From positions 3,100,001-3,164,000 of the forward strand of contig NZ_JAPEOQ010000001.1 of assembly GCF_026341035.1 (NCBI RefSeq): a stretch of DNA of 64,000 nucleotides. The letters run 5' to 3'. Positions within the stretch are counted from its first letter, which is position 1; each line of letters starts with the position of its first letter. A program made the translations under genes and the position numbers. This stretch comes from Streptomyces sp. NBC_01016. Its GTDB lineage: Bacteria; Actinomycetota; Actinomycetes; Streptomycetales; Streptomycetaceae. Below the pieces are notes generated by a model. The model was not told the origin of the DNA. It saw nothing but the letters and a program-made list of their open reading frames with translations, and ran no database searches. Positions 24,075 to 33,877 of the stretch are shown piece after piece.

Positions 24075-26708
24075 GTGGAGCAGTCACGGGAAGACAATGA
24101 GGCCATGGGACGCGGGACGCGCGGGAAACTACGGATCTACCTCGGCAGCGCACCGGGCGTCGGCAAGACGTACGCGATGCTGTCCGAGGCACACCGCCGG
24201 GTGGAGCGGGGCACGGACTGCGTGGTGGCGTTCGTCGAGCATCACGACCGGCCGCGCACCGAGGTGATGCTGCACGGCCTGGAGCAGATCCCGCGCAAAG
24301 AGCTCGCGTACCGGGGGACGGTCTTCCACGAGATGGACGTGGACGCCGTGCTGCTGCGCGCCCCGGCCGTCGCCCTCGTCGACGAACTGGCGCACACGAA
24401 CGTGCCGGGCTCGCGCAACGCCAAGCGCTGGCAGGACGTCGAGGAACTGCTTGGTGCGGGCATCGACGTCATATCGACCGTCAACATCCAGCATCTTGAG
24501 TCGTTGGGCGATGTGGTTGATTCGATCACTGGTGTACGTCAACGGGAGACGGTCCCCGACGAAGTCGTCCGCCGTGCCGACCAGATCGAACTCGTCGACA
24601 TGTCGCCCCAGTCGCTGCGCCGCCGCATGGCCCACGGCAACATCTACAAGTCCGACAAGGTCGACGCGGCGCTCTCCAACTACTTCCGCCCCGGAAACCT
24701 CACCGCGCTGCGGGAGTTGGCGCTCCTGTGGGTCGCCGACCGGGCCGACGAGTACCTCCAGGAGTACCGGGGCGAGCACAACATCCGCTCCACGTGGCAG
24801 GCCCGCGAGCGCATCGTCGTCGGCCTGACCGGAGGCCCCGAGGGCCGCACGTTGATCAGGCGCGCGGCGCGGCTCGCCGAGAAGGGCGCGGGCGGCGAGG
24901 TGCTCGCGGTCTACATCGCCCGCAGCGACGGCCTCACCGCCGCCTCGCCCAAGGAGCTGGCCGTCCAGCGCACCCTGGTCGAAGACCTGGGCGGCACGTT
25001 CCACCACGTCATCGGCGACGACATCCCCGCAGCCCTCCTGGAGTTCGCCCGCGGAGTCAACGCCACCCAGATCGTCCTCGGCTCCTCGCGGCGCAAGACC
25101 TGGCAGTACATGTTCGGCCCCGGCGTCGGCGCGACCGTCGCCCGCGAGTCCGGGCCCGACCTCGACGTGCACATCGTCACGCACGACGAGGTCGCCAAGG
25201 GGCGCGGACTGCCCGTCGCCCGCGGCGCCCGGCTCGGCCGGTCCCGGATCGTGTGGGGCTGGCTCACCGGCATCGGCGGCCCCGCGCTGCTCGCCCTTGT
25301 CCTCACGCACACCCACAGCGACCTCGGCCTCGCCAACGACATGCTGCTGTTCCTGTCGCTGACGGTCGCCGCCGCCCTGGTCGGCGGACTGCTTCCGGCG
25401 CTGGCCTCGGCGGCCTTCGGCTCACTGCTGCTCAACTACTTCTTCACGCCGCCCCTGCACCTGTGGACCGTCGCCGACCCCCGCAACATCGTCGCCATCG
25501 TGATCTTCGTGGGCGTCGCGGTGTCCGTGGCCTCGGTCGTGGATCTTGCGGCGCGGCGCACCCACCAGGCGGCCCGGCTGCGCGCCGAGTCCGAGATCCT
25601 CGCCTTCCTGGCGGGCAGCGTGCTGCGCGGCGACACCAGCCTGGAGGCGCTGCTCGAACGCGTACGGGAGACCTTCGCGATGGAGTCCGTGGCACTCCTG
25701 GAGCGGGAGGGCGACACCGCGCCGTGGACCTGCGCCGCGAGCGTCGGCACGCAGTCCCTCGGCCGGCCCGAGGACGCCGATGTCGACATGCCGGTCGGGG
25801 ACCACCTGGCGCTCGCCCTGACCGGGCGCGTGCTGCCCGCGGAGGACCGGCGCGTGCTCGCCGCGTTCGCCGCGCAGGCCGCCGTCGTGCTCGACCGCCA
25901 GCGCCTGCAGTCCGAGGCCGACACGGCGCGGGCGCTCGCCGAGGGCAACCGCATCCGTACGGCCCTGCTGGCCGCCGTCTCGCACGATCTGCGCACGCCG
26001 CTCGCGGGCATCAAGGCGTCGGTGTCGTCGCTGCGCTCCGAGGACGTCGACTGGTCGCCCGAGGACCAGGCGGAACTGCTCGCCGGGATCGAGGAGGGCG
26101 CCGACCGGCTCGATCACCTCGTCGGGAACCTGCTCGACATGTCGCGCCTCCAGACCGGCACCGTCACCCCGCTCATCCGCGAGATCGACCTCGACGAGGT
26201 CGTGCCGATGGCGCTGGTCGGCGTGCCCGACCCGGATCTCAACGTCGACCTGGACGTGCCCGAGACGCTGCCCATGGTCAGCGTCGACAAGGGGCTCCTG
26301 GAGCGCGCCGTCGCCAACGTCGTCGAGAACGCGGTCAAGTACAGCCCGCCCGACAAGCCCGTCCTCGTCTCCGCGAGCACGCTCGGCGACCGCGTCGAGC
26401 TGCGCGTCGTGGACCGCGGGCCCGGAGTCCCTGACGAGGCCAAGGACCGGATTTTCGAGCCCTTCCAGCGCTACGGTGACGCTCCGCGCGGCGCCGGTGT
26501 GGGCCTCGGGCTCGCCGTGGCGCGCGGCTTCACGGAGGCCATGGGAGGCACGCTCGGCGCGGAGGACACTCCAGGAGGCGGGCTCACGATGGTCCTGACC
26601 CTGCGGGCCGCGACCCGCACCACCCCGGACACGGCCCCGGAGGCCGTACGGACAGCCGGACAAGCAGCCGGACAGGCAGCTGGTCCCCAGAGAGGCAGGC
26701 ACGCATGA
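24075..26708 (+). CDS. kdpD: KdpD-type sensor histidine kinase
   Basis: An 877-residue kinase with full KdpD architecture. The N-terminal KdpD domain has a Walker-A-like GSAPGVGKT (about residues 24-32) and the DELAHTN block. A Usp-like domain spans about 245-365. Four close TM helices lie at about 395-500, then GAF, HisKA with His637 (SHDLRTPLAG) and HATPase (VVENAVKYSP; GVGLGLAVARG). KdpD reads potassium limitation or ionic stress and controls KdpE. The Usp domain reads LTGGPEGR where c-di-AMP-binding S. aureus KdpD has an SxS motif, so that ligand is doubtful. No kdpFABC follows. The ATG at 24105 is an alternative start. It overlaps kdpE by four bases. Confidence 0.9.
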   Translation: MEQSREDNEAMGRGTRGKLRIYLGSAPGVGKTYAMLSEAHRRVERGTDCVVAFVEHHDRPRTEVMLHGLEQIPRKELAYRGTVFHEMDVDAVLLRAPAVALVDELAHTNVPGSRNAKRWQDVEELLGAGIDVISTVNIQHLESLGDVVDSITGVRQRETVPDEVVRRADQIELVDMSPQSLRRRMAHGNIYKSDKVDAALSNYFRPGNLTALRELALLWVADRADEYLQEYRGEHNIRSTWQARERIVVGLTGGPEGRTLIRRAARLAEKGAGGEVLAVYIARSDGLTAASPKELAVQRTLVEDLGGTFHHVIGDDIPAALLEFARGVNATQIVLGSSRRKTWQYMFGPGVGATVARESGPDLDVHIVTHDEVAKGRGLPVARGARLGRSRIVWGWLTGIGGPALLALVLTHTHSDLGLANDMLLFLSLTVAAALVGGLLPALASAAFGSLLLNYFFTPPLHLWTVADPRNIVAIVIFVGVAVSVASVVDLAARRTHQAARLRAESEILAFLAGSVLRGDTSLEALLERVRETFAMESVALLEREGDTAPWTCAASVGTQSLGRPEDADVDMPVGDHLALALTGRVLPAEDRRVLAAFAAQAAVVLDRQRLQSEADTARALAEGNRIRTALLAAVSHDLRTPLAGIKASVSSLRSEDVDWSPEDQAELLAGIEEGADRLDHLVGNLLDMSRLQTGTVTPLIREIDLDEVVPMALVGVPDPDLNVDLDVPETLPMVSVDKGLLERAVANVVENAVKYSPPDKPVLVSASTLGDRVELRVVDRGPGVPDEAKDRIFEPFQRYGDAPRGAGVGLGLAVARGFTEAMGGTLGAEDTPGGGLTMVLTLRAATRTTPDTAPEAVRTAGQAAGQAAGPQRGRHA

Positions 26709-27388
26709 CCCGGGTGCTCGTGGTCGACGACGAGCCGCAGATCGTCCGCGCCCTCGTCATCAACCTGAAGGCGCGCAAGTACGAGGTGGACGCCGCCGCG
26801 GACGGGGCGCAGGCGCTGCAGCTCGCCGCCGCCCGCCACCCCGACGTGATCGTCCTCGACCTGGGCCTGCCCGACATGGACGGCGTCGAGGTGATCAAGG
26901 GGCTGCGCGGCTGGACCCGCGTACCGATCCTGGTGTTGTCCGCGCGGCATTCGTCCGACGAGAAGGTCGAGGCGCTCGACGCGGGCGCCGACGACTACGT
27001 GACCAAGCCCTTCGGCATGGACGAGCTCCTCGCCCGGCTGCGGGCGGCCGTGCGGCGGGCCGAGCCCACGGGCGGGACCGAGGACGAGGGGATCGTCGAG
27101 ACCTCGGACTTCACGGTCGACATGGCCGCGAAGAAGGTCAACCGGGGCGGGCACGACGTACGGCTGACCCCCACCGAATGGCATCTTCTGGAGGTCCTGG
27201 TGCGCAATACGGGCCGCCTGGTCAGCCAGAAGCAGCTGCTGCAGGAGGTGTGGGGGCCCTCGTACGGGACGGAGACCAACTACCTGCGGGTGTACATGGC
27301 GCAGTTGCGGCGCAAGTTGGAGACCGATCCCTCGCATCCGCGGCACTTCGTCACGGAACCGGGGATGGGGTACCGATTCGAGCGGTGA
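26705..27388 (+). CDS. kdpE: KdpE-type response regulator
   Basis: A 227-residue OmpR-family regulator. The receiver has Asp8-Asp9, phosphoacceptor Asp52 (VLDLGLPDMDG) and the conserved Lys in VTKPFGM near residue 102. The C-terminal winged helix (about 135-227) ends PSHPRHFVTEPGMGYRFER, as in KdpE. The ATG lies inside the kdpD stop (ATGA), so the pair is coupled. Targets are not visible here; the nearest potassium transporter is the KimA-like gene 3 kb downstream. Confidence 0.9.
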   Translation: MTRVLVVDDEPQIVRALVINLKARKYEVDAAADGAQALQLAAARHPDVIVLDLGLPDMDGVEVIKGLRGWTRVPILVLSARHSSDEKVEALDAGADDYVTKPFGMDELLARLRAAVRRAEPTGGTEDEGIVETSDFTVDMAAKKVNRGGHDVRLTPTEWHLLEVLVRNTGRLVSQKQLLQEVWGPSYGTETNYLRVYMAQLRRKLETDPSHPRHFVTEPGMGYRFER

Positions 27389-27421
27389 GGCCCGCGAAAG
27401 CGGGTACACCAGCGGGTACGA

Positions 27422-27446
27422 CCCTGTCACAGGGCCCAGGTACGCT
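27422..27446 (+). promoter_or_regulatory. Leaderless promoter with palindrome for the OB-fold gene
   Basis: TACGCT (27441-27446) ends 6 nt before the ATG at 27453. Just upstream CCCTGT-C-ACAGGG (27422-27434) is a perfect 13-bp palindrome across the -35 region and a candidate operator. Confidence 0.5.
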
Positions 27447-27452
27447 TCCAGT

Positions 27453-27863
27453 ATGAGTGCTGTTCCGCGTTCCGAAAGGGCGTCCGAGAAGCCGGCGGGC
27501 CGGTTCCGGCGCATGCTCGACCGGCTGTCCAGTTCCCAGGAGGACCTGGAGTCGGAGGAGCTGCGCGAGGACTCGGAGACCACCGGCTGCACGCGCATCG
27601 GCGACTGTGCGGACCGACAAATGGTCACTGTTACTGGTACGTTGCGCACGGTAACCCTGCGACCACGCGCCGGAGTTCCCGCGCTGGAGGCGGAGTTGTT
27701 CGACGGCTCGGCCGCGGTGGACGTGGTGTGGCTCGGCAGGCGCTCGATCGTCGGGATCGAGCCGGGGCGCAAACTCATAGCTTCGGGACGGATCTCGATG
27801 AGTCGGGGCCGTAGGGTGCTGTTCAATCCGAAGTACGAACTCAGACCGCTCGGACGGGAGTAG
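27453..27863 (+). CDS. OB-fold nucleic-acid-binding domain protein
   Basis: A 136-residue protein. After a basic/acidic N-terminus (residues 1-45) comes a single OB fold, about 55-135, of the tRNA-anticodon/RecG-wedge type (MVTVTGTLRTVTLRP, GSAAVDVVWLGRRSI, RKLIASGRISMSRGR, LFNPKYEL). It probably binds single-stranded nucleic acid or contacts a partner; there is no catalytic domain. The start is leaderless. It is followed after 3 bp by the DUF3159 gene and the two are co-transcribed, an arrangement common in actinobacteria near the trkA genes. Confidence 0.85.
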   Translation: MSAVPRSERASEKPAGRFRRMLDRLSSSQEDLESEELREDSETTGCTRIGDCADRQMVTVTGTLRTVTLRPRAGVPALEAELFDGSAAVDVVWLGRRSIVGIEPGRKLIASGRISMSRGRRVLFNPKYELRPLGRE

Positions 27864-27866
27864 CCG

Positions 27867-28640
27867 GTGACGTCCCTCGACAAGCCGACCGAACGTGAAC
27901 CCGGAGTCGATCAAGGCGCCGTGACGGACAAGTCCGTGACCGAGGCCGCGCTCTTCGAGGCCTTCGGCGGCGTGCGGGGCATGGTGGAGACCGTCCTGCC
28001 CGGCCTCCTCTTCGTGAGCATCTTCACGGTCAACAAGGACCTGCACATGTCGGCCATCGCGGCCCTCGCGGTGTCCCTGGTCCTCGTCGTCGTGCGCCTC
28101 GTCATGAAGGACACCGTCAAGCACGCCTTCAGTGGCGTCTTCGGTGTCGCCTTCGGTGTTGTCTTCGCGATGATGACGGGCAACGCCAAGGACTTCTATC
28201 TGCCGGGCATGCTCTACACGTTGGGGCTCGCGCTCGCGTACATCGTCACGACGCTGTGCGGGGTGCCGTTGATCGGGCTGATCCTCGGCCCCGTGTTCAA
28301 GGAGAACCTCTCCTGGCGCACCCGCAACCCCGGGCGCAAGAAGGCGTACGCCAAGGCGAGTTGGGCCTGGGGCCTGATCCTCCTGGCCAAGTGCGCGATT
28401 CTGTTCCCGCTGTACTGGTGGGGGGACACCACGCAATTCGGCTGGGTGCTCGTCGCGTTGAAGATCCCGCCGTTCCTGCTGGCGGTGTGGCTCACGTGGG
28501 TGTTCCTGGCGAAGGCGCCCGCGCCCATCGACGTGTTCGCGGAGATGGAGGAGAAGGAGCGGCAGGCCGAGGCCGAGCGCGAGCAGGCTCAGGCCGCCAG
28601 TGAAGAGAACGGGCGGGCGCGGCATCGCCGCGAGGTCTGA
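27867..28640 (+). CDS. DUF3159 family integral membrane protein
   Basis: A 257-residue membrane protein with about five to six transmembrane helices between residues 35 and 220. It has a short N-terminal cytoplasmic segment (VTEAALFEAFGGVRGMVETVLPG, typical of DUF3159) and a charged, helical, Glu/Arg/Ala-rich C-terminal tail that may coil. Function unknown. The GTG start at 27867 comes 3 bp after the OB-fold stop. Its constant linkage to the OB-fold gene and to potassium-related trkA genes hints at membrane or ion homeostasis, an inference from neighbours only. Confidence 0.85.
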   Translation: MTSLDKPTEREPGVDQGAVTDKSVTEAALFEAFGGVRGMVETVLPGLLFVSIFTVNKDLHMSAIAALAVSLVLVVVRLVMKDTVKHAFSGVFGVAFGVVFAMMTGNAKDFYLPGMLYTLGLALAYIVTTLCGVPLIGLILGPVFKENLSWRTRNPGRKKAYAKASWAWGLILLAKCAILFPLYWWGDTTQFGWVLVALKIPPFLLAVWLTWVFLAKAPAPIDVFAEMEEKERQAEAEREQAQAASEENGRARHRREV

Positions 28641-28677
28641 CCCTCGTACGACCCGAGAGCGGCCCTCGTACGACCCG
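28641..28677. repeat. Two copies of a 15-bp direct repeat
   Basis: CCCTCGTACGACCCG occurs at 28641-28655 and 28663-28677, right after the DUF3159 stop and before the terminator. Each contains the palindrome CGTACG. It may be slippage debris or a protein site. Confidence 0.5.
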
Positions 28678-28687
28678 TCGTGAACGA

Positions 28688-28730
28688 CATGGAGGCGGCC
28701 CCGAGCCGAGAGCTCGGGGCCGCCTCCATG
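28688..28730. terminator. Bidirectional terminator between DUF3159 and trkA genes
   Basis: A perfect 19-bp stem (28688-28706 with 28712-28730) closes a 5-nt loop. It lies 47 bp after one stop and 28 bp after the other. GC-rich, no U run. Confidence 0.85.
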
Positions 28731-28758
28731 TGCCTGCCTCATGCAGAAGCGTTACGCG

Positions 28759-29430
28759 TTACGCGTCCTCGCGTCGCACCGACAGCAGGTCCTCCAGCTG
28801 CTCCTCGCGCGCCTGCGCCGCGACGAACAGCAGCTCGTCGCCCGCCTCGAGGGAGTCCTCCGCGCTGGGGGCCAGCACGCGGGTGCCGCGGATGATCGTC
28901 ACGAGGGACGTGTCCTGCGGCCACTGGACGTCACCGACCCGGGTGCCGGCCAGGGCCGACTCCTCCGGGAGGGTCAGCTCGACCAGGTTCGCGTCGCCGT
29001 GGCTGAAGCGGAGCAGGCGGACGAGATCGCCCACGCTGACCGCCTCTTCGACGAGCGCCGACATGAGGCGCGGCGTCGAGACGGCCACGTCCACGCCCCA
29101 CGACTCGTTGAACAGCCACTCGTTCTTCGGGTTGTTGACGCGGGCGACGACCCGCGGGACCCCGTACTCGGTCTTCGCGAGCAGCGAGACGACCAAGTTG
29201 ACCTTGTCGTCGCCGGTGGCCGCGATGACCACGTTGCAGCGCTGCAGCGCCGCCTCGTCCAGGGACGTGATCTCGCAGGCGTCGGCGAGCAGCCACTCCG
29301 CCTGCGGGACGCGCTCGACCGAGATGGCGGTCGGGGCCTTGTCGACGAGGAGGACCTCGTGACCGTTCTCCAGGAGCTCGCCCGCGATCGAACGACCGAC
29401 CGCTCCGGCTCCGGCAATGGCGACCCTCAT
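28759..29430 (-). CDS. TrkA family potassium uptake regulatory protein (RCK), second copy
   Basis: A 223-residue cytoplasmic RCK protein. The RCK_N Rossmann fold begins MRVAIAGAGAVGRSIAGEL with GxGxxG and an acidic end to strand 2 (VDK), so it binds NAD(H) or ATP. The RCK_C domain, about 135-220, has the LPEESALAGTRVGDVQWP pattern. It gates a partner potassium transporter in response to nucleotide or c-di-AMP. Its ATG shares one base with the stop of the upstream trkA (TGATG), so the two are coupled and may assemble together. The open frame to 29685 is a read-through of the neighbour. Confidence 0.92.
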   Translation of the reverse strand: MRVAIAGAGAVGRSIAGELLENGHEVLLVDKAPTAISVERVPQAEWLLADACEITSLDEAALQRCNVVIAATGDDKVNLVVSLLAKTEYGVPRVVARVNNPKNEWLFNESWGVDVAVSTPRLMSALVEEAVSVGDLVRLLRFSHGDANLVELTLPEESALAGTRVGDVQWPQDTSLVTIIRGTRVLAPSAEDSLEAGDELLFVAAQAREEQLEDLLSVRREDA

Positions 29431-30098
29431 CACTGACCGCCTTCCTCGGGGCCCTCGGCGAACGCCGCCTCGACCTTCTCGACGTCGTCCGTGCGCATCA
29501 TCACGTGCACGAGGTCGCCCTCCTGAAGCACCGTCTGCGACGTCGGCAGGATCGCCTCGCCGAGCCGGGTCAGGAACGCGACGCGTACGCCGGTCTCCTC
29601 CTGGAGGCGGCTGATCTTCTGGCCGATCCAGGACTCCGAGGCGTGCACCTCGGCGAGCTGGACGCCGCCGGTGGGGTCGCGCCACAGCGGCTCCGCGCCG
29701 GACGGCAGCAGGCGCCGCAGCATCTGGTCGGCGGTCCAGCGGACCGTGGCGACCGTCGGGATGCCCAGGCGCTGGTAGACCTCCGCACGACGGGGGTCGT
29801 AGATGCGCGCCGCCACGTTCTCGATGCCGAACATCTCGCGGGCCACGCGGGCGGCGATGATGTTCGAGTTGTCACCACTGGAGACGGCGGCGAAGGCGCC
29901 GGCCTCCTCGATGCCCGCTTCGCGCAGGGTGTCCTGGTCGAAACCGACTCCGGTGACCCGACGGCCGCCGAAACCCGAACCCAGGCGACGGAACGCCGTC
30001 GGGTCCTGATCGACCACGGCGACCGTGTGGCCCTGCTGCTCCAGGGTCTGGGCGAGTTGGGACCCTACTCGGCCACAGCCCATGATCACGATATGCAC
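29430..30098 (-). CDS. TrkA family potassium uptake regulatory protein (RCK), first copy
   Basis: A 222-residue RCK protein, paralogous to the next gene. RCK_N starts HIVIMGCGRVGSQLAQTLE with GCGRVGS and VVDQDP. RCK_C (about 135-215) has VHASESWIGQKISRLQEE and EGDLVHVMMRTDD. The start is the GTG at 30098, where conservation begins. A GTG at 30113 lies against GAGGA and is too close for use. It is divergent from the KimA-like importer, 281 bp away, so the RCK pair and the importer probably work as one potassium system. No TrkH/KtrB-type membrane partner is in the window. Confidence 0.9.
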   Translation of the reverse strand: MHIVIMGCGRVGSQLAQTLEQQGHTVAVVDQDPTAFRRLGSGFGGRRVTGVGFDQDTLREAGIEEAGAFAAVSSGDNSNIIAARVAREMFGIENVAARIYDPRRAEVYQRLGIPTVATVRWTADQMLRRLLPSGAEPLWRDPTGGVQLAEVHASESWIGQKISRLQEETGVRVAFLTRLGEAILPTSQTVLQEGDLVHVMMRTDDVEKVEAAFAEGPEEGGQ

Positions 30099-30355
30099 GG
30101 CCCTACCCCGCACTCCTCATAGGCCTTCTGACCTGCGTAAACGTCCTGCTCATGGCTCTCTCTCGCGGGATGGTCCAGCCGGTGCGGCTCGATCTCGGGC
30201 ACGATGCGGGCTGCTGTGCGGCTCGCGCTCTGGACCACCGTATCGGCTCTGTAAGAGATCTCCCCCTTCGCGTCGGTGGACAGTCGGTGGTCACATCTGC
30301 GCAGGCGTGGCGCACAGCACGAAGCTGAATGGGGGTGGTGGGTGGGCGACCCCCC

Positions 30356-30372
30356 GTTCGAACGCTTACGAT
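30356..30372 (+). promoter_or_regulatory. Leaderless promoter and palindrome of the KimA-like gene
   Basis: TACGAT (30367-30372) ends 7 nt before the GTG at 30380. GTTCGAAC (30356-30363) is a perfect 8-bp palindrome immediately upstream. No leader remains for a ydaO-type c-di-AMP riboswitch. Confidence 0.5.
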
Positions 30373-30379
30373 CCTCTCC

Positions 30380-32425
30380 GTGTCCAAACTGACCGACGTG
30401 CCCAAACGGATCTTGATCGGGCGCGCACTGCGCAGCGACCGGCTGGGAGAAACGCTCCTGCCGAAGCGCATCGCTCTCCCCGTTTTCGCTTCCGACCCGC
30501 TGTCCTCCGTGGCGTATGCGCCCGGCGAGGTCCTGCTGGTCCTCTCCATTGCGGGCGTGTCGGCCTACCACTTCAGCCCCTGGATCGCGGTCGCGGTCGT
30601 CGTGCTGATGTTCACGGTCGTCGCCTCCTACCGCCAGAACGTCCACGCCTATCCGAGCGGTGGCGGCGACTACGAGGTGGCGAACACCAACCTCGGGCCG
30701 AAGGCCGGCCTCACCGTCGCGAGCGCGCTGCTCGTCGACTACGTCCTGACGGTGGCCGTGTCGATCTCGTCCGGCATCGAGAACCTCGGCTCCGCGGTCC
30801 CGTTCGTGATCGAGCACAAGGTGCTGTGCGCGGTCGCCGTGATCGTGCTGCTCACCTTGATGAATCTGCGCGGTGTGAAGGAGTCGGGGAAGCTTTTCGC
30901 CATTCCCACGTACGTCTTCGTGGCCGGCGTCTTCATCATGATCGCCTGGGGTGCGTTCCGCGGGCTCGTCCTCGGCGACGCCATGCACGCGCCCACCGCC
31001 GACTTCCACATCAAGGCGGAGCACCAGGGCCTCGCGGGCTTCGCGCTCGTCTTCCTGCTGCTGCGCGCCTTCTCGTCCGGATGTGCGGCGCTCACCGGCG
31101 TCGAGGCGATCTCCAACGGTGTCCCGGCCTTCCGCAAGCCGAAGTCGAAGAACGCGGCGAGCACGCTCGCGCTGATGGGCGGCCTCGCCGTCACCATGTT
31201 CTGCGGCATCATCGTGCTGGCCCTCGTGACCGACGTGCGGATGGCGGAGAACCCGGCGAAGGATCTGATCCACAACGGTGCCGCGGTCGGCTCCGGTTTT
31301 GTGCAGGACCCGGTGATCTCGCAGGTCGCCGAGGCCGTCTTCGGCGGCGGCAGCTTCATGTTCCTGGTCCTCGCGGCCGCCACCGCCCTCGTCCTCTTCC
31401 TCGCGGCCAACACCGCGTACAACGGCTTCCCGCTGCTCGGCTCGATCCTCGCCCAGGACCGCTACCTGCCGCGCCAGCTGCACACCCGCGGCGACCGCCT
31501 CGCGTTCTCCAACGGCATCGTGCTGCTGGCGGGCGCGGCGGCCCTCCTGGTCGTCATCTACGGGGCCGACTCGACGCGCCTGATCCAGCTGTACATCGTG
31601 GGCGTGTTCGTCTCCTTCACGCTCAGCCAGATCGGCATGGTGCGGCACTGGAACCGGCACCTGGCCACGGAGCGGGACCCCGCCAAGCGCCGCCACATGA
31701 TCCGCTCCCGCGCGATCAACACGTTCGGCGCGTTCCTGACCGGCATGGTCCTCGTGGTCGTCCTCCTTACGAAGTTCACGCACGGCGCCTGGGTCGCACT
31801 GCTCGGCATGTGCATCTTCTTCGTGACGATGACCGTGATCCGCAAGCACTACGACCGGGTCGCCGAGGAGATCGCCGCGCCGGAGACCCCGACGGACGAC
31901 AGCGTGCGCCCCTCGCGCGTGCACTCCCTGGTCCTCGTGTCGAAGATCCACCGGCCGACGCTGCGGGCGCTCGCGTACGCCAAGTTGATGCGCACGGACA
32001 CCCTTGAGGCATTGAGCGTCAATGTTGATCCAGCAGAGACGAAGACGTTGAGGGACGAGTGGGAGCGTCGAGGTATTGACGTGCCGCTCAAGGTTCTTGA
32101 CTCGCCGTACCGGGAAATCACCCGGCCGATCATCGAGTACGTGAAGAACCTGCGCCGCGAGTCCCCGCGCGACGCGGTCAGCGTGATCATCCCCGAGTAC
32201 GTGGTGGGCCACTGGTACGAGCACCTGCTGCACAACCAGAGCGCGCTGCGGCTGAAGGGGCGACTGCTCTTCACCCCCGGCATCATGGTCACGTCCGTCC
32301 CGTACCAGCTGGAGTCCTCCGAGGCCGCGAAGAAGCGGGCCCGCAGGCGGTCCGAGTGGAACGCGCCGGGTGCCGTGCGGCGCGGTCCGGTCGAGAAGCG
32401 CCCGAAGGAGCCCACCTCGAAGTAG
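30380..32425 (+). CDS. APC superfamily potassium importer, KimA-like
   Basis: A 681-residue membrane protein with 12 predicted helices in residues about 40-480 and a cytosolic domain of about 190 residues. Blocks match what I know of B. subtilis KimA: SDPLSSVAYAPGE, YRQNVHAYPSGGGDY, LLVDYVLTVAVSISSG, FSSGCAALTGVEAISNGVP, LAANTAYNGFPLL and RGDRLAFSNGI. KimA is a high-affinity proton-coupled potassium importer inhibited by c-di-AMP. Databases may label this only as an amino-acid permease. The start is the leaderless GTG at 30380; the open frame begins at 30329. It is divergent from the twin trkA genes and ends at a strong terminator. The C-terminal Arg/Lys/Pro tail is strain-type low complexity. 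Confidence 0.88.
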   Translation: MSKLTDVPKRILIGRALRSDRLGETLLPKRIALPVFASDPLSSVAYAPGEVLLVLSIAGVSAYHFSPWIAVAVVVLMFTVVASYRQNVHAYPSGGGDYEVANTNLGPKAGLTVASALLVDYVLTVAVSISSGIENLGSAVPFVIEHKVLCAVAVIVLLTLMNLRGVKESGKLFAIPTYVFVAGVFIMIAWGAFRGLVLGDAMHAPTADFHIKAEHQGLAGFALVFLLLRAFSSGCAALTGVEAISNGVPAFRKPKSKNAASTLALMGGLAVTMFCGIIVLALVTDVRMAENPAKDLIHNGAAVGSGFVQDPVISQVAEAVFGGGSFMFLVLAAATALVLFLAANTAYNGFPLLGSILAQDRYLPRQLHTRGDRLAFSNGIVLLAGAAALLVVIYGADSTRLIQLYIVGVFVSFTLSQIGMVRHWNRHLATERDPAKRRHMIRSRAINTFGAFLTGMVLVVVLLTKFTHGAWVALLGMCIFFVTMTVIRKHYDRVAEEIAAPETPTDDSVRPSRVHSLVLVSKIHRPTLRALAYAKLMRTDTLEALSVNVDPAETKTLRDEWERRGIDVPLKVLDSPYREITRPIIEYVKNLRRESPRDAVSVIIPEYVVGHWYEHLLHNQSALRLKGRLLFTPGIMVTSVPYQLESSEAAKKRARRRSEWNAPGAVRRGPVEKRPKEPTSK

Positions 32426-32545: not shown

Positions 32546-33877
32546 ATGCAGGCAGAACCGACGACGTCACTGGTGGGGGAGGAGTACGAGGTCGAGGTCG
32601 GCCCCGTCGCGCACGGCGGCCACTGCATCGCGCGCACGGCCGAGGGCCAGGTCCTCTTCGTCCGGCACACGCTGCCCGGCGAGCGGGTCGTGGCACGGGT
32701 GACCGAGGGCGAGGAGGGCGCGCGCTTCCTGCGCGCCGACGCCGTCCAGGTCATCGAGGCGTCCAAGGACCGCGTCGAGGCGCCCTGCCCCTACTCGGGA
32801 CCCGGCCGCTGCGGCGGCTGCGACTGGCAGCACGCCAAGCCCGGCGCGCAGCGCCGCCTCAAGGGCGAGGTCATCGCCGAGCAACTGCAGCGCCTCGCGG
32901 GCCTCACGCCCGAGGAGGTCGGCTGGGACGGCACGGTCATGCCGGCCGAGGGCGACAAGCTCCCGTCGGGCGAGGTCCCGCAGTGGCGCACACGCGTCCA
33001 GTACGCGATCGACGCCGACGGCAACGCGGGCCTGCGCCGCCACCGCTCGCACGAGGTCGAGCCGATCGAACACTGCATGATCGCCGCCGAGGGCGTGTCC
33101 GAGCTCGGCATCGAGAAGCGTGACTGGTCCGGCATGGAGTCGGTCGAGGCGATCGCGGCGAGCGGCTCGCAGGACCGCCAGGTGATCCTCGCCCCGAAGC
33201 CCGGCGCCCGCCTGCCGATCGTCGAGCTCGACAAGCCGGTCTCCGTGATGCGGGTCGAGGAGAAGGACGGCGGCGTGCACCGCGTCCACGGCCGCCCCTT
33301 CGTGCGTGAGCGTGCCGACGACCGTACGTACCGCGTCGGCAGCGGTGGCTTCTGGCAGGTGCACCCGAAGGCGGCGGACACGCTGATGCGCGCCGTCATG
33401 CAGGGCCTGCTGCCGCGCAAGGGCGACATGGCGCTCGACCTGTACTGCGGCGTCGGCCTGTTCGCGGGCGCGCTCGCGGACCGGATCGGCGACAAGGGCG
33501 CGGTCCTCGGCATCGAGTCCGGCAAGCGTGCCGTCGAGGACGCCCGGCACAACCTGGAGGCCTTCGACCGGGTCCGCATCGAGCAGGGCAAGGTCGAGGC
33601 GGTCCTGCCGCGCACCGGCATCTCCGAGGTCGACCTCATCGTCCTGGACCCGCCGCGCGCGGGCGCCGGCAAGAAGACGGTCACCCACCTCACGACGCTC
33701 GGCGCCCGCCGCATCGCCTACGTGGCCTGCGACCCGGCCGCCCTCGCGCGCGACCTCGGGTACTTCCAGGAGGGCGGGTACCGGGTGCGGACGCTGCGGG
33801 CGTTCGACCTGTTCCCGATGACGCATCACGTCGAGTGCCTGGCGATTCTTGAGCCCGCCGAGAAGGGCCGGTCGTAG
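32546..33877 (+). CDS. TRAM/TrmA-type class I SAM-dependent RNA (uracil-5-) methyltransferase
   Basis: A 443-residue enzyme. It has an N-terminal TRAM domain (about 10-70, GPVAHGGHCIAR), then cysteines CPYSGPGRCGGCDWQH plus HCMIA. These four Cys resemble the [4Fe-4S] site of RlmD/RlmCD. The SAM site DLYCGVGLFAG is near 295 and LDPPRAG near 370. The catalytic nucleophile Cys is in VACDPAALARDL (about 395) and a general-base Glu in HHVECLAIL. It should make 5-methyluridine in rRNA or tRNA; which position cannot be told. GGAG lies 8 nt before the ATG. It converges on the AraC gene with a 13-bp gap. Confidence 0.92.
   Translation: MQAEPTTSLVGEEYEVEVGPVAHGGHCIARTAEGQVLFVRHTLPGERVVARVTEGEEGARFLRADAVQVIEASKDRVEAPCPYSGPGRCGGCDWQHAKPGAQRRLKGEVIAEQLQRLAGLTPEEVGWDGTVMPAEGDKLPSGEVPQWRTRVQYAIDADGNAGLRRHRSHEVEPIEHCMIAAEGVSELGIEKRDWSGMESVEAIAASGSQDRQVILAPKPGARLPIVELDKPVSVMRVEEKDGGVHRVHGRPFVRERADDRTYRVGSGGFWQVHPKAADTLMRAVMQGLLPRKGDMALDLYCGVGLFAGALADRIGDKGAVLGIESGKRAVEDARHNLEAFDRVRIEQGKVEAVLPRTGISEVDLIVLDPPRAGAGKKTVTHLTTLGARRIAYVACDPAALARDLGYFQEGGYRVRTLRAFDLFPMTHHVECLAILEPAEKGRS

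What the first reader, a model, noticed from the sequence alone, without database searches (positions are those of the whole stretch)
24075..32425. Potassium module: KdpDE, twin RCK proteins and a KimA-like importer without kdpFABC or TrkH/KtrB
KdpDE, two coupled TrkA-type RCK genes and a divergent KimA-like gene lie within 8 kb, yet no partner pump or channel for KdpE or TrkA is present. Known KimA and RCK proteins respond to c-di-AMP. The layout suggests that the RCK pair gates the KimA-like importer, which has not been the standard pairing.
Basis: partly seen in the sequence, partly recalled or inferred. Interest (0 to 1): 0.58.

Follow-up and report, generated by a model that had tools for sequence, protein, structure and literature searches.

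The report
Potassium importer linked to twin regulators
In many actinobacteria a KimA-type potassium importer travels with a pair of potassium-regulating (RCK) proteins and a small OB-fold protein, which suggests that this importer is the missing membrane partner of the so-called Trk system in these bacteria.

Summary
The genes are as described. The importer is a true KimA homologue (end-to-end match to solved KimA, E 1e-118, K+ site intact). The twin RCKs are a split TrkA, and the 10.0 Mb genome has no TrkH/KtrB match. kdpABC does exist, on the other contig, so KdpDE has an ordinary target; KdpDE is a genus-level neighbour, not part of the module.

KimA-RCK recurs in 18 families outside the window's class and in 74 of 76 testable named loci. 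KimA-OB fusions occur in 20 genomes. One well-supported branch in each of the RCK-A and RCK-B trees separates KimA-partnered RCKs from those beside a P2-type P-type ATPase or TrkH.

Against exclusive pairing: RCKs persist in 3 genomes (93-99% complete) without KimA, many KimAs stand alone, OB is missing from some loci, and direct gating is inferred only. The RCKs lack the published c-di-AMP signature, so c-di-AMP probably acts on KimA and adenine nucleotides on the RCKs.

Most likely an RCK-regulated K+/H+ symporter, the unrecognised membrane partner of actinobacterial "Trk" (CeoBC in mycobacteria).

The parts
24105..26708 (+). KdpD sensor kinase (genus-level neighbour, probably not part of the module)
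   Evidence: Pfam PF02702 E 2e-96 plus Usp, DUF4118, HisKA, HATPase; the only complete KdpD match in the genome
26705..27388 (+). KdpE-type response regulator
   Evidence: best NCBIfam match KdpE 261 bits, under that model's cut-off of 325
27453..27863 (+). OB-fold protein, proposed KimA subunit
   Evidence: AF2 model pLDDT 88, OB fold; somewhere in the fetched locus in 72 of 75 KimA-RCK loci, 0 of 40 P-ATPase-RCK and 0 of 6 TrkH-RCK loci; fused to KimA in other genomes
27867..28640 (+). DUF3159 protein, class-level neighbour
   Evidence: PF11361 E 2e-59; in most class loci
28759..29430 (-). RCK-B (TrkA_N + TrkA_C), second gene of the pair (CeoC-type by position)
   Evidence: tree
29430..30098 (-). 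RCK-A (TrkA_N + TrkA_C), first gene of the pair (CeoB-type by position)
   Evidence: tree
30099..30379 (.). divergent intergenic region; TACGAT just before the GTG start of kimA is shared by the aligned loci that reach this point (possible promoter, inferred)
   Evidence: no Rfam match; no KdpE site demonstrated
30380..32425 (+). KimA-type K+/H+ symporter
   Evidence: 6s3k match E 1.4e-118; K+ site D38, Y45, T238, Y404 and c-di-AMP-site R364, H617, N618, Q619, S620 present (numbering of P0001, which lacks the start residue)
32546..33877 (+). RlmD-type RNA methyltransferase, conserved flank in the class
   Evidence: TIGR00479 201 bits, over its cut-off

Best explanation
The locus is this genome's copy of an old actinobacterial potassium-import module: a KimA K+/H+ symporter, two small RCK proteins that together equal a split TrkA, and an OB-fold protein. 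Inferred mechanism: the RCK pair forms a ring on the cytosolic side of KimA and switches it with the ATP/ADP or NAD state, while c-di-AMP inhibits KimA through KimA's own cytosolic domain; the OB protein is a KimA-bound accessory subunit. Shown here: gene content, absence of a TrkH match, conservation, KimA-OB fusions, partner-specific RCK clades. Inferred: physical contact, direction of gating, ligand, role of OB. KdpDE next door is a lineage-restricted neighbour whose expected target is the distant kdpABC.
For: KimA homology end to end; each K+-site residue kept in 90-93 of 94 RCK-linked KimAs. No TrkH in the own genome and none in 56 of 77 class genomes with adjacent RCK-A and KimA. Nearest partner within 1.5 kb in 139 loci: KimA 75, P-type ATPase 40, TrkH 6; KimA-RCK in 18 families outside the class, the 9 loci at 2-3.5 kb included; 74 of 76 testable named loci. 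In both RCK trees one branch (SH-aLRT 97 and 99) separates KimA-partnered RCKs from the rest with one misplaced genome, G102, which has a KimA plus OB gene on another contig. OB: 72 of 75 KimA loci against 0 of 46 others; KimA-OB fusions in 5 genomes and 15 more by shared open frame. Published: M. tuberculosis lacking ceoBC has a lower K+ signal after K+-free growth (PMC12136442, passages).
Against: RCK pair kept with no KimA match in G311, G314, G355 (98, 93, 99% complete) and in the less complete G351; no adjacent KimA in 18 of 95 class genomes. KimA of 52% identity without RCK match in G268, where 10 of 19 RCK candidates were scored; no RCK near KimA in L288 and at 3.5 kb in L303. OB not found in 7 of 76 named loci, 5 of them with RCK and KimA adjacent and ample flank. 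20 of 20 selected lone-KimA loci have no RCK in the flanks, and RCK-linked KimAs are not one clade. No KimA-RCK fusion found. The ceoBC deletion gave no growth defect in low K+ (PMC6375644, passages). B. subtilis KimA transports K+ as a homodimer (PMC10284832, passages; that it needs no RCK is recalled). No test of binding or transport here.
Confidence: 0.58

Rival explanations
1. The RCK pair is a general regulator that serves several K+ transporters in the cell (KimA, TrkH where present, perhaps others); KimA is one client and adjacency reflects frequent but not exclusive use.
For: RCK pair retained in place after KimA and OB were lost (G311 and G355 have TrkH; G314 has neither KimA nor TrkH match); in the five f80 genomes KimA lies elsewhere while the RCK pair stayed.
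Against: KimA-partnered RCKs form their own clade apart from TrkH- and P-ATPase-partnered ones; G314 leaves the pair with neither client.
Confidence: 0.25
2. The genes share a locus only by conserved gene order and common control of a divergent promoter; the RCKs regulate another K+ carrier, for example a channel.
For: Within the class the block is conserved together with housekeeping genes. Actinobacteria have other K+ channels: one with Ion_trans_2 and TrkA_N in this genome, MchK in M. smegmatis (PMC9025972, passages).
Against: Those channels carry an RCK domain of their own. Outside the class the flanks differ but KimA, RCK pair and OB stay together, divergent in 63 and co-directional in 12 of 75; RCK clades follow the partner.
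Confidence: 0.12
3. One reading: KdpDE, RCK and KimA form one module in which c-di-AMP acts through the RCKs.
For: KdpD has a Usp domain and KimA keeps most of the c-di-AMP pocket.
Against: KdpDE restricted to same-genus loci and to 3 of 80 named loci; RCK_C c-di-AMP signature 0 of 301, without a positive control; Vnz_27460 reported not to bind c-di-AMP (PMC10117811, passages).
Confidence: 0.05

Closest known systems
KimA of Bacillus subtilis (KUP family K+/H+ symporter; 6s3k, 8b70, 8b71)
   Same: Full-length homology, K+ site, most c-di-AMP pocket residues
   Different: Here linked to two RCK proteins and an OB protein; no ydaO riboswitch found
TrkAH / KtrAB systems
   Same: RCK_N + RCK_C regulators with GxGxxG; two single-RCK proteins as in Thermotoga TM1088A/B (3l4b)
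   Different: No TrkH/KtrB membrane subunit in the genome
CeoBC 'Trk' system of Mycobacterium
   Same: KimA with divergent twin RCK in 74 of 76 testable named loci, Mycobacterium and Mycolicibacterium among them; papers treat CeoB and CeoC as the Trk uptake system (PMC8358298, PMC12136442, PMC13163235, passages)
   Different: The neighbouring KimA and OB genes are not named in the passages found; that Rv2690c and Rv2694c are the KimA and OB genes is recalled, not tested on that genome
KhtTU / CpeAB (RCK_C protein plus cation/H+ antiporter)
   Same: RCK-type regulator next to a secondary transporter
   Different: Antiporter family with c-di-AMP-binding RCK_C, thought to export K+ (PMC10117811, passages)

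Membership tests
KimA (KUP-family K+/H+ symporter) | End-to-end sequence similarity to solved KimA including the cytosolic domain | tested here: met
   E 1.4e-118, query 8-643 against chain 6-605
KimA (KUP-family K+/H+ symporter) | K+-coordinating residues Asp36, Tyr43, Thr230, Tyr377 | tested here: met
   D38, Y45, T238, Y404 in P0001; residue list from PMC10284832 passages
KimA (KUP-family K+/H+ symporter) | c-di-AMP pocket Arg337, His579, Asn580, Gln581, Ser582 | tested here: met
   R364, H617, N618, Q619, S620 in P0001; Pro479 is replaced by Leu (counted by eye). Less constant in other RCK-linked KimAs, e.g. Arg in 79 of 94, Gln in 68 of 94
KimA (KUP-family K+/H+ symporter) | K+ uptake activity | not testable with these tools
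   none
Trk/Ktr K+ uptake system | RCK regulator with TrkA_N and TrkA_C | tested here: met
   both proteins
Trk/Ktr K+ uptake system | TrkH/KtrB membrane subunit | tested here: not met
   0 matches in the own genome; 28 of 98 class genomes have one
c-di-AMP-binding RCK_C (KtrA/CpeA type) | (I/L)(I/L)X2DX1RX5N(I/L)(I/L) signature | tested here: not met
   0 of 301 RCKs, in a form relaxed to I/L/V/M and in the core D.R.....N alone; no positive control was run
KdpDE with kdpFABC | KdpDE and kdpABC in one genome | tested here: met
   KdpDE in window; kdpA, kdpC and, by position and P-type ATPase domains, kdpB on C1 near 2.55 Mb; kdpF not sought
RCK-gated KimA complex (proposed) | Physical complex of RCK pair and KimA | not testable with these tools
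   no complex modelling; gene neighbourhood and phylogeny only

The most novel reading that the evidence does not exclude
A twin-RCK cassette has changed its transporter client during actinobacterial evolution, between TrkH channels, Na,K-ATPase-like P2-type pumps and KimA, which became an RCK-gated secondary symporter with an OB-fold subunit; this complex, and not a TrkH channel, is the constitutive 'Trk' K+ importer of Streptomyces and mycobacteria.
Probability: 0.45. Interest if true: 0.8.

Novelty: new variant of a known kind. Interest (0 to 1): 0.62.

Why it matters
RCK proteins are known regulators of channels and antiporters. A KUP-family symporter under RCK control would be a new client class. 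It would also fill a gap: CeoBC is called a potassium uptake system although it consists of two TrkA-type proteins, and ceoBC deletion alters K+ level and host colonisation in M. tuberculosis (PMC12136442, PMC6375644, passages). The locus names a candidate membrane subunit and an OB subunit, each testable by deletion in laboratory strains. The P-type-ATPase/RCK gene pairs suggest a wider rule: one cassette, several kinds of transporter.

Tried and rejected
KdpDE as part of the module: rejected by its restriction to same-genus loci and to 3 of 80 named loci. c-di-AMP riboswitch: no Rfam match in the window, L166, L306 or L239. KdpE site before 30380: the divergent region of nine loci (the window, seven same-genus genomes and Streptomyces sp. 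CB02414) shows no convincing shared operator, only a conserved element at the kimA start; no KdpE consensus was available, so this is not a test. KimA-RCK fusion: none among the ORFs held. KimA-side monophyly: not found. A first RCK tree used a bloated profile and the script failed; repeated with a clean profile; one search built a tree but printed no counts, one search did. OB fold match: best is RecG (1gm5) and generic OB domains, so no ligand is indicated. A second structure job was not used. KimA against OB over 98 class genomes: both 89, KimA only 2 (G326, and G365 at a contig end), OB only 2 (G297, G351), neither 5; Fisher p 6e-6, which ignores relatedness. OB was counted at E < 1e-20; weaker matches lie in frames of about 730-1250 aa and are presumed RecG (not tested).

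Full report
Observation. The window is about 70% G+C and lies at 3.10-3.16 Mb of contig C2 of a 10.0 Mb, two-contig genome. It is probably a Streptomyces (inferred: among 80 named loci only L295, L303 and L306 have Kdp genes in the locus; two of them are titled Streptomyces and one Saccharothrix). The named genes are all present at the stated places. RCK-A (29430-30098) and RCK-B (28759-29430) each carry TrkA_N and TrkA_C and share one base. The KimA-like protein aligns end to end with solved KimA, E 1.4e-118.

What is missing and what is not. No TrkH/KtrB match exists in the whole genome. kdpA and kdpC, with a P-type ATPase gene between them, lie on the other contig, C1 near 2.55 Mb, next to a second KimA of 37% identity. 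Two short KdpD-like matches (open frames of 145 and 143 aa) lie about 0.8 kb past that kdpC, near a transposase gene, so the window's KdpD is the only complete one found. KdpDE therefore has a normal target. Another TrkA_N protein of the genome is a channel with an Ion_trans_2 domain.

The class locus. In 19 of 20 fetched loci from the same genus and class the order is (dut)-(DUF3710)-OB-(DUF3159)-RCK-B/RCK-A (reverse)-KimA-RlmD; bracketed genes are missing, cut off or undetected in some loci. The exception, G268, has a KimA of 52% identity and no RCK match, with 10 of 19 RCK candidates scored. KdpD and KdpE lie in the locus in 7 of 8 same-genus loci (the eighth, G193, shows a KdpE-like match of 67% alone) and in none of the 11 module loci of other families. 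Among 80 named loci (Mycobacterium, Mycolicibacterium, Rhodococcus, Nocardia, Gordonia, Amycolatopsis, Micromonospora, Streptomyces and others), 76 have at least 2.5 kb upstream of KimA; 74 of these have the twin RCK pair divergent within 2.5 kb (exceptions L288 without RCK, L303 at 3.5 kb) and 69 have OB. Of the 7 without OB, L229 is cut by its contig end, L288 lacks the RCKs too, and five (two Lentzea, Nocardia sp. NRRL S-836, a Dietzia, a Pseudonocardia) have RCK and KimA but a changed flank.

The phylum. In a sample of 296 genomes, KimA matched in 133 (E up to 0.001, some of them weak), an RCK in 277 and TrkH in 168. I fetched 119 RCK-centred loci from 118 of the 277 genomes, chosen from the stronger listed matches outside the class; genomes with weaker RCK matches were not fetched, so TrkH-linked RCKs are under-represented. 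With 20 class loci this makes 139. The nearest partner within 1.5 kb was KimA in 75, a P-type ATPase in 40, TrkH in 6, KimA 2-3.5 kb away in 9, none in 8 (several at contig ends), no RCK in 1. KimA is divergent from the RCK pair in 63 of 75 and upstream on the same strand in 12; the P-ATPase is upstream on the same strand in 39 of 40; TrkH is downstream on the same strand in 6 of 6. KimA-RCK, the 9 wider-spaced loci included, occurs in 18 families outside the class. The P-ATPases were labelled by sequence similarity; three were checked in Pfam and one against solved structures, where Na,K-ATPase alpha (E 4e-173) and the Listeria Ca2+-ATPase (E 1e-159) match.

The OB-fold protein. It is somewhere in the fetched locus in 72 of 75 KimA-RCK loci (two of the three misses are at contig ends) and in 0 of 40 P-ATPase and 0 of 6 TrkH loci. 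KimA and OB are one reading frame in G080, G166, G210, G230 and G241, and in 15 class genomes an OB match and a KimA match lie in one open frame of the same length (G317 also read directly). The model of the window protein is an OB fold (pLDDT 88); nearest solved folds are RecG and generic OB domains. In ten class loci KimA has gone from between RCK-A and RlmD; in all ten OB has gone from its usual place too (in the five f92 loci DUF3710 was not detected either), while in the five f80 genomes, where KimA lies elsewhere, OB stayed. Of the ten, the five f92 genomes and G315 carry a KimA-OB fusion elsewhere, G326 a more distant KimA without OB, and G311, G314 and G355 no KimA match and no OB match under 1e-20.

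RCK phylogeny. RCK-A and RCK-B fall on two sides of an old duplication. Rows were labelled by the partner of their locus, wider-spaced KimA included. In the RCK-A tree (82 KimA, 63 P-ATPase, 6 TrkH rows; 10 rows without partner not counted) one branch with SH-aLRT 97 separates KimA-partnered rows from the others with one misplaced row; in the RCK-B tree (81, 46, 6; 7 not counted) the branch has 99 and one misplaced row. Both misplaced rows are G102, whose KimA and OB lie on another contig. KimA itself shows several subfamilies beside this one RCK clade, so an RCK of this clade keeps company with some KimA even when the KimA subfamily differs.

Class-wide co-occurrence. In 98 class genomes RCK-A matched in 95, KimA in 91, TrkH in 28, OB (E < 1e-20) in 91. 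RCK-A and KimA are adjacent in 77 of 95; 56 of these 77 genomes have no TrkH. The 18 others: five f80 (KimA elsewhere), five f92 and G315 (KimA-OB fusion elsewhere), G326 (distant KimA elsewhere), G311, G314, G355 (no KimA), G302, G351 and G370 (RCK at a contig end). RCK retention without KimA argues against a strictly dedicated role.

Ligands. All 163 KimA-partnered RCKs in the trees have GxGxxG; none of 301 RCKs has the published RCK_C c-di-AMP signature, in a scan without a positive control. [quoted passage not shown] Vnz_27460, numbered next to KimA-like Vnz_27465, is among the others (PMC10117811, passages). That Vnz_27460 is the orthologue of RCK-A or RCK-B is inferred from that numbering. 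KimA keeps the Arg337, His579, Asn580, Gln581 and Ser582 equivalents in the window protein (residues from PMC10284832, passages).

Link to literature. Papers on M. tuberculosis describe CeoB and CeoC as the Trk uptake system; TrkH, KimA and Rv2690 were not found in three papers searched for all three (PMC12136442, PMC6375644, PMC13163235), and TrkH and Rv2690 not in a fourth (PMC8358298). The ceoBC mutant has a lower K+ signal in K+-free medium but showed no growth defect in low K+. Searches for Rv2690c (12 papers) and Rv2694c (8 papers) list no title on potassium transport (listings only). Searches for KimA with RCK (30 papers), KimA with TrkA and actinobacteria (8), RCK domain with P-type ATPase and operon (2) and one narrower form (0) listed no title describing these pairings (listings only, open-licence papers only). 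That Rv2690c is the KimA orthologue and Rv2694c the OB orthologue is recalled; Mycobacteriaceae loci here show the arrangement.

Verdict. The pairing is real and old; the OB protein belongs to it; KdpDE does not. Direct RCK regulation of KimA is the best reading but is inferred.

Noticed in passing
L086:4099-8350 and 39 further loci: Twin RCK genes beside a P2-type P-type ATPase on the same strand, directly downstream in 39 of 40; looks like an RCK-linked cation pump.
   Followed up: partly
L166:4286-4838: Two short KdpD-like matches past kdpC in the own genome, near a transposase gene: probably a degraded kdpD.
   Followed up: partly
L166:10490-12334: Second KimA-like gene directly upstream of kdpA; several c-di-AMP-pocket positions differ (His for Arg337, Gln for His579, Arg for Ser582).
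   Followed up: partly
L055:8020-10362: KimA with an extra stretch that looks like a duplicated cytosolic domain, beside OB and the RCK pair.
   Followed up: no
L054:4275-6659: Membrane pyrophosphatase directly upstream of a KimA-clade RCK pair whose KimA lies about 82 kb away on the same contig (G146).
   Followed up: no
L099 and L095: A P-type ATPase followed by five RCK units on one strand.
   Followed up: no
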